Position numbers and translations under genes: made by a program | From: Chloroflexota bacterium | GTDB taxonomy: Bacteria; Chloroflexota; Anaerolineae; Anaerolineales; UBA4823 | Direction of reading: 5' to 3' | Assembly (NCBI GenBank): GCA_029265355.1 | Contig: JAJUJL010000005.1 | Span: 104,339-168,338, forward strand | Length of the DNA: 64,000 bases | Shown here: piece after piece, positions 26,548-27,228 of the stretch | Position numbering within the stretch: position 1 is the first letter of the stretch | Layout of the letters: every line of letters begins with the position of its first letter | The notes under the pieces: generated by a model | Databases searched by the model: none | The model's input: only the letters and a program-made list of their open reading frames with translations | Told to the model about the DNA's origin: nothing

Positions 26548-27228
26548 ATGAGCGAAAAACTGCTCAACGACGATATCGTTCAACAACTCAAAGACGTCTT
26601 CCAACAACTGCAAAATCCGGTAGAAGTGCTGTTTTTTGGGAGCAAGAAGGATTGCGAATATTGCGACGATACCCGGCAACTGGCCGAAGAAGTGGTCGCC
26701 ACATCGGATAAGCTGCACATGCAGGTTTACGATATCGACGAGCACGCCGAGATTGCCCGCCAATACCATGTGGATAAAGTTCCCGGCCTGGTTCTGGCTG
26801 CCCGTGACGGCGACCGCATCATCGACTACGGCGTGCGTTTTGCAGGCATTCCTTCGGGGCATGAATTCAGCTCGCTGGTGCACGACCTGGTGCTAGTTTC
26901 TGGTCGCGACTCGGGCTTGAGCCCACAAACGCGCAGCTTTCTGGCCGATCTGAAAGAACCGGTGCTGCTGCAAGTCTTCGTAACTCCTACCTGACCTTAC
27001 TGCCCGCGAGCCGTGGTGCTCGCTCACCAAATGGCCCTGGAGAGCCCGATGGTTCAGGCCGAGATGGTGGAAGCCATGGAGTTCCAGGAGCTTTCCTATC
27101 GCCACCATGTCAGCGGCGTGCCCCAGACCACGATCAATGACGGCGCTGCGCATGTGGTTGGCGCTGTGCCAGAAGGCAATCTACTGGCAGAAATTATGAA
27201 AGTGGTATCCAAAAAGAAATCTAAATAA
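26548..27228 (+). CDS. candidate selenoprotein: two-thioredoxin-fold protein disulfide oxidoreductase with in-frame TGA (26992-26994) as Sec in UPYC
   Basis: MSEKLLNDDIVQQLKDVF..FFGSKKDCEYCDDTRQL..LQVFVTPT[TGA]PYCPRAVVLAHQMALESPMVQAEMVEAMEFQELSYRHHVSGVPQTTIND..KKKSK*; both halves in one frame; RBS AGAAGGAG. Confidence 0.72.
27006..27023 (+). promoter_or_regulatory. candidate bacterial SECIS hairpin GCGAGC-CGTGGT-GCTCGC
   Basis: Perfect 6-bp stem, 6-nt loop with G at loop position 2 then T; stem begins 11 nt after the TGA. Confidence 0.65.

What the first reader, a model, noticed from the sequence alone, without database searches (positions are those of the whole stretch)
26548..27228. Candidate new selenoprotein: protein disulfide oxidoreductase with in-frame TGA at the first catalytic Cys (UPYC)
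Seen directly: the reading frame from ATG 26548 gives an N-terminal Trx-fold with DCEYC, reaches LQVFVTPT, hits TGA at 26992-26994, and without any frame change continues PYCPRAVVLAHQMALESP...VSGVPQTTIND...KKKSK to TAA at 27226-27228. Established: two-domain PDO/glutaredoxin-like proteins carry a second CPYC after a TPT-like strand, so the TGA sits at the expected first Cys. Redox CxxC to UxxC replacement is the usual hallmark of Trx-fold selenoproteins. Inference: U149 of a 226-residue selenoprotein. The ORF track splits the gene (26467-26994 and 27013-27228), and automatic annotation would do the same.
Basis: partly seen in the sequence, partly recalled or inferred. Interest (0 to 1): 0.92.

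Follow-up and report, generated by a model that had tools for sequence, protein, structure and literature searches.

The report
Selenocysteine-containing disulfide oxidoreductase, known family
A bacterial gene that looks broken by a stop codon almost certainly makes one intact thiol-redox enzyme by reading that stop as selenocysteine; this is a real selenoprotein of an already described selenoprotein family, found here in an Anaerolineae (Chloroflexota) bacterium.

Summary
ATG 26548 to TAA 27226-27228 is one 226-codon frame, interrupted only by TGA 26992-26994 at the first Cys of the C-terminal CPYC (UPYC, U149). The same genome has tRNA-Sec(UCA), selA, selB and a selD that itself reads CAGUASK. 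Of 70 Chloroflexota homologues examined, 43 have TGA at this same codon and 27 have TGC/TGT; none has another stop inside. A hairpin with compensatory changes begins 12 nt after the TGA in 19/21 Anaerolineales-type Sec genes and only 2/26 Cys genes. The part after the TGA is under purifying selection at least as strong as the part before. No protein-level proof is available here.

The parts
26548..27228 (+). Sec-containing two-domain protein disulfide oxidoreductase (TIGR02187), 226 aa, C36EYC39 in domain 1 and U149PYC152 in domain 2
26992..26994 (+). in-frame TGA read as selenocysteine (U149)
   Evidence: TGA at this codon in 43 of 70 Chloroflexota homologues, Cys codon in the other 27; also in closest relatives L090, L092, L093, L099
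27006..27023 (+). predicted bacterial SECIS upper hairpin GCGAGC-CGTGGT-GCTCGC, starting at the 12th nt after the TGA, G in the second loop position
25377..25994 (+). ECF sigma factor, probable regulator gene of the cluster
   Evidence: Pfam Sigma70_r2/r4_2; linked to PDO in many relatives
25991..26242 (+). zinc-finger anti-sigma factor with HLASCENC (Hx3Cx2C) motif
   Evidence: Pfam zf-HC2; conserved linkage
26291..26500 (+). small CxxC...CxxC zinc-ribbon-like protein, just upstream of PDO
   Evidence: sequence, no Pfam hit, but homologues just upstream of PDO in 20 or more relatives
27245..27502 (+). YruB-family glutaredoxin-like protein, Cys form (SCSYC)
   Evidence: NCBIfam TIGR02196 above cut-off
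27520..27891 (+). NifX/NifB-type Fe-Mo cofactor-binding domain protein
   Evidence: Pfam PF02579
27929..28513 (+). TlpA/ResA-like thiol-disulfide oxidoreductase (WCPPC)
   Evidence: Pfam AhpC-TSA; conserved linkage
28515..28991 (+). OsmC-family protein
   Evidence: Pfam OsmC; conserved linkage

Best explanation
The gene encodes a two-thioredoxin-fold protein disulfide oxidoreductase (PDO / AhpF N-terminal-domain type). SelB with Sec-tRNA(Sec) and a hairpin just downstream of the UGA insert selenocysteine at residue 149, the nucleophilic first position of the C-terminal active site U-P-Y-C. Mechanism, inferred from the family: the C36-C39 pair of domain 1 and the U149-C152 pair of domain 2 exchange electrons, with U149 as the attacking selenolate on substrate disulfides (or peroxide-oxidised partners). 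The gene sits in a thiol-redox cluster behind an ECF sigma factor and a zinc anti-sigma factor, so it is probably induced by thiol-oxidative stress. Shown here: frame, homology, predicted fold, conservation of TGA/Cys, hairpin, presence of the Sec machinery, gene linkage. Inferred: actual Sec incorporation, catalytic role, regulation.
For: Frame and position of the TGA. TIGR02187 at 277 bits against cut-off 185 only when the halves are joined. tRNA-Sec with anticodon TCA at C34, selB at C29, selA at C17, selD at C31 with its own TGA in SSCAGUASKL. TGA at this codon in 43 and TGC/TGT in 27 of 70 homologues, no other internal stop before the normal terminator. 33 of 37 tested Sec-PDO genomes have selA over the cut-off; one more has it in two adjoining pieces; the three without are only 76-88% complete, while six of the Cys-only genomes lack it. 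Hairpin complete in 19/21 Sec versus 2/26 Cys Anaerolineales-type genes, Fisher p about 1e-8, uncorrected for kinship, with compensatory G-C to A-U changes in 4 sequences at one pair. Purifying selection after the TGA at least as strong as before it (L090: pN/pS 0.18 downstream, 0.32 upstream). AlphaFold model pLDDT 95 closest to Aquifex, Pyrococcus and Aeropyrum PDO structures, TM about 0.9. Cluster conserved in dozens of relatives.
Against: The hairpin is not unusually stable against shuffles of its own sequence (z -0.5), and mean folding energy does not separate Sec from Cys genes; its support is comparative. The nearest Sec relatives share ancestry, so the hairpin counts are not independent events. 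No protein-level or read-level data are available.
Confidence: 0.95

Rival explanations
1. The gene is a pseudogene or a truncated one-domain protein: a nonsense mutation from TGC/TGT to TGA destroyed the second active site.
For: Close Cys homologues exist (L021/L094, about 65% identity), so the ancestral codon may have been Cys and the change is one base.
Against: TGA at the same codon in 43 of 70 homologues and in the four-member clade of nearest relatives; downstream region more conserved than upstream with pN/pS about 0.18-0.27 against the nearest Sec relatives; no other disruptions; complete Sec machinery.
Confidence: 0.02
2. Sequencing or assembly error: the true codon is TGC or TGT.
For: It is an assembly in 64 contigs and reads could not be inspected.
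Against: Independent genomes carry TGA at this codon, including L090 (71% identity) with the same hairpin; stem-forming synonymous codons (CGA...CTC) go with TGA and mostly not with Cys.
Confidence: 0.02
3. UGA is read through as another amino acid (Trp or Cys by near-cognate tRNA, or a recoded code) and not as Sec.
For: Not distinguishable by DNA alone.
Against: Ordinary genes nearby end in TGA, so the code is not reassigned; tRNA-Sec, SelA, SelB and a Sec-containing SelD are present; the alternation in homologues is strictly with Cys.
Confidence: 0.01

Closest known systems
[quoted passage not shown] 2006, PMC1794560; reviews PMC9312934, PMC13188914)
   Same: Same profile family over full length, same UxxC motif; named cases are Carboxydothermus hydrogenoformans and Symbiobacterium thermophilum (PMC1794560) and some Asgard archaea (PMC11227280).
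   Different: The passages read do not name Chloroflexota for this family; here Sec forms are widespread in that phylum and lie in an ECF/anti-sigma thiol-redox cluster.
Pyrococcus furiosus and Aquifex aeolicus protein disulfide oxidoreductase (PDB 1a8l, 2ayt, 2ywm)
   Same: Two thioredoxin-fold domains, a CxxC in each, about 36% identity, TM about 0.9; CPYC of 1a8l aligns with UPYC.
   Different: Cys and not Sec at the first position of the C-terminal motif (seen for the 1a8l alignment).
AhpF N-terminal domain (PDB 5h29, 1zyn)
   Same: Same double-thioredoxin fold (TM 0.74-0.83).
   Different: In AhpF it is fused to a flavoprotein reductase; no such fusion here.

Membership tests
TIGR02187 PDO_seleno_TRX | score over the curated cut-off over the whole length | tested here: met
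   277 bits against 185, profile 2-208 of 209
TIGR02187 PDO_seleno_TRX | two thioredoxin-fold domains each with a CxxC (or UxxC) | tested here: met
   C36EYC39 and U149PYC152; model and PDB matches
TIGR02187 PDO_seleno_TRX | disulfide oxidoreductase activity | not testable with these tools
   needs purified protein
bacterial selenoprotein | in-frame UGA aligned with a conserved catalytic Cys of homologues | tested here: met
   43 TGA, 27 TGC/TGT among 70 homologues
bacterial selenoprotein | Sec machinery (selA, selB, selC, selD) in the same genome | tested here: met
bacterial selenoprotein | bacterial SECIS: stem-loop immediately downstream of UGA with a small apical loop holding a G (PMC1088965) | tested here: met
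   6-bp stem, 6-nt loop with G second, conserved with covariation in Sec genes and mostly lost in Cys genes; bSECISearch itself not run
bacterial selenoprotein | selenium present in the protein | not testable with these tools
   needs 75Se labelling or MS

The most novel reading that the evidence does not exclude
In Anaerolineales the PDO was ancestrally a selenoprotein, and its Sec has been replaced by Cys many times independently while most hosts kept Sec decoding, leaving decaying SECIS hairpins in Cys genes. That is the reverse of the mainly Cys-to-Sec trend reported for thiol-redox selenoproteins in 2006, and it occurs in a gene probably under an ECF/zinc anti-sigma thiol-stress switch.
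Probability: 0.5. Interest if true: 0.45.

Novelty: new member of a known kind. Interest (0 to 1): 0.33.

Why it matters
Standard annotation would split this gene, and probably its Sec relatives, into two fragments, hiding what is likely a main thiol-redox enzyme of many Chloroflexota. The family offers closely related Sec and Cys versions in the same gene cluster, mostly in genomes that still decode Sec, which makes it a good natural experiment on why selenocysteine is kept or lost and how SECIS elements decay.

Tried and rejected
Unconstrained folding energy downstream of the TGA does not separate Sec from Cys genes (p 0.16) and the window hairpin is not exceptional against shuffles; only the position-specific comparison is informative. 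The apparent extra TAA or TGA stops in several relatives (L021-L023, L026, L027, L030) turned out to be at the C-terminal end, i.e. the normal terminators. A scan of the whole window for other read-through TGA frames showed mainly gene ends and neighbouring gene starts, judged by eye; no second convincing Sec gene in the window. Rfam and ARAGORN found nothing in the window itself; tRNA-Sec is on another contig. Literature searches for this family in Chloroflexi/Anaerolineae found no dedicated paper.

Full report
Observation. The reading frame ATG 26548 to TAA 27226-27228 is present as described. The single internal stop is TGA 26992-26994, codon 149 of 226, at the first Cys position of the C-terminal CPYC motif. 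Neither half reaches the TIGR02187 cut-off alone, but the joined product scores 277 bits against 185 with adjoining profile coordinates, and the TGA sits on profile position 140.

What it is. The product is a two-domain protein disulfide oxidoreductase. Sequence matches in the PDB are the Pyrococcus, Aquifex and Aeropyrum PDOs. The AlphaFold model (pLDDT 95, pTM 0.92) superposes on Aquifex PDO 2ayt with TM about 0.9 and rmsd 1.3 Å, then on Pyrococcus 1a8l and on AhpF N-terminal domains. Both active-site motifs are intact: C36EYC39 and U149PYC152.

Is the TGA selenocysteine? The genome (5.05 Mb in 64 contigs, 98% complete) has a tRNA-Sec with anticodon TCA, selB, selA and selD; SelD itself carries Sec in SSCAGUASKL. 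Of 70 Chloroflexota homologues examined, 43 have TGA and 27 have TGC/TGT at exactly this codon; no other internal stop occurs before the normal terminator. In 37 tested genomes with the TGA form, 33 have selA over the cut-off and one (G232) has it in two adjoining pieces; the three without are 76-88% complete. Six genomes with only the Cys form lack selA.

Hairpin. From the 12th to the 29th nucleotide after the TGA the window can form GCGAGC-CGTGGT-GCTCGC, with a G in the second loop position, in agreement with the described bacterial SECIS (small apical loop holding a G, immediately downstream of the UGA; PMC1088965). Among Anaerolineales-type genes it is complete in 19/21 Sec and 2/26 Cys genes, and in 5/5 versus 0/9 in the first set. 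Four Sec genes replace the third pair G-C by A-U (GCAAGC...GCTTGC), a compensatory change, and sliding the partner by 1-3 columns drops pairing from 97% to at most 53%. More distant Chloroflexota Sec genes mostly lack this stem but share another (GGCC-type stem starting at +18; 79% of Sec against 11% of Cys). Against shuffles of its own sequence the window hairpin is not remarkable, so the evidence is comparative only, and kinship among the sequences is not corrected for in the counts.

Selection. Against L090 (71% identical overall) pN/pS is 0.32 before and 0.18 after the TGA; constraint after the TGA is similar or stronger against all nine relatives tested. That argues strongly against a decaying pseudogene.

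Relatives and evolution. The window's nearest clade (window, L090, L093 Candidatus Desulfolinea nitratireducens, L099) is all Sec. Around it Sec and Cys forms alternate: at least 7 changes on the phylum-wide tree (6 forced by well-supported branches) and 11 on an Anaerolineales tree (9-12 in bootstraps, at least 5 forced). Parsimony counts cannot give direction. Because Sec genes scattered over the tree share nearly the same hairpin, and two Cys genes (L106, L116) still have a complete stem while others keep one arm of it (L022, L024, L034, L112), I infer one ancestral Sec gene with repeated Sec-to-Cys losses. The 2006 survey found Sec-to-Cys changes confined to four families, mostly FdhA and SelD (PMC1794560), so this would be an addition, but it is an inference.

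Surroundings. The gene lies in an apparent operon: ECF sigma factor, anti-sigma factor with a zinc-binding Hx3Cx2C motif, small zinc-ribbon-like protein, PDO, YruB-type glutaredoxin, NifX-like protein, TlpA/ResA-like protein, OsmC protein, rhodanese-like protein (the rhodanese from its sequence only). ECF and anti-sigma genes lie near PDO in about half of 109 relatives' loci, TlpA and OsmC in about 40% (many loci are short and some records overlap, so these are rough). By analogy with SigR/RsrA (own knowledge, not tested) this suggests a thiol-stress regulon.

Known or new. [quoted passage not shown]) and are tabulated as TIGR02187, UxxC in 2022 and 2026 reviews, with Asgard archaeal cases in 2024. 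The NCBIfam model's short name is PDO_seleno_TRX. I found no paper describing the Chloroflexota members or the cluster, though the held library is incomplete. Hence: real, correctly interpreted, new member of a known kind.

Noticed in passing
L168 around 6373 (+ strand); L164, Grx homologue at about +1426 from PDO: The glutaredoxin-like neighbour of PDO (Cys form SCSYC in the window, 27245-27502) has TGA in place of its first active-site Cys in two relatives (IFTTPT-U-PHC, VYTTPT-U-PYC), so the neighbour also alternates between Sec and Cys.
   Followed up: partly
window 25377-29368: Apparent nine-gene cluster: ECF sigma, zf-HC2 anti-sigma (HLASCENC), zinc ribbon, PDO, Grx, NifX-like, TlpA-like, OsmC, rhodanese-like; large parts conserved in dozens of Anaerolineales.
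   Followed up: partly
genome G232 (bears L055), contig C6:30365-31518: selA appears in two overlapping pieces in different frames in a genome that carries a Sec PDO: a frameshift or a sequencing error.
   Followed up: no
L045, L048, L049: In one family (f26) the N-terminal CxxC of PDO is lost (GEYS) while the C-terminal CPYC is kept, suggesting the C-terminal site is the more essential one.
   Followed up: no
L106 and L116, just after the Cys codon: Cys homologues that keep a complete six-pair SECIS-like stem, possible relics of a former Sec gene.
   Followed up: partly
L053-L087 (distant Chloroflexota Sec genes): A different conserved hairpin, of the GGCCAG-TGGCC type, follows the TGA, so SECIS elements of the same family differ between groups of the phylum.
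   Followed up: partly
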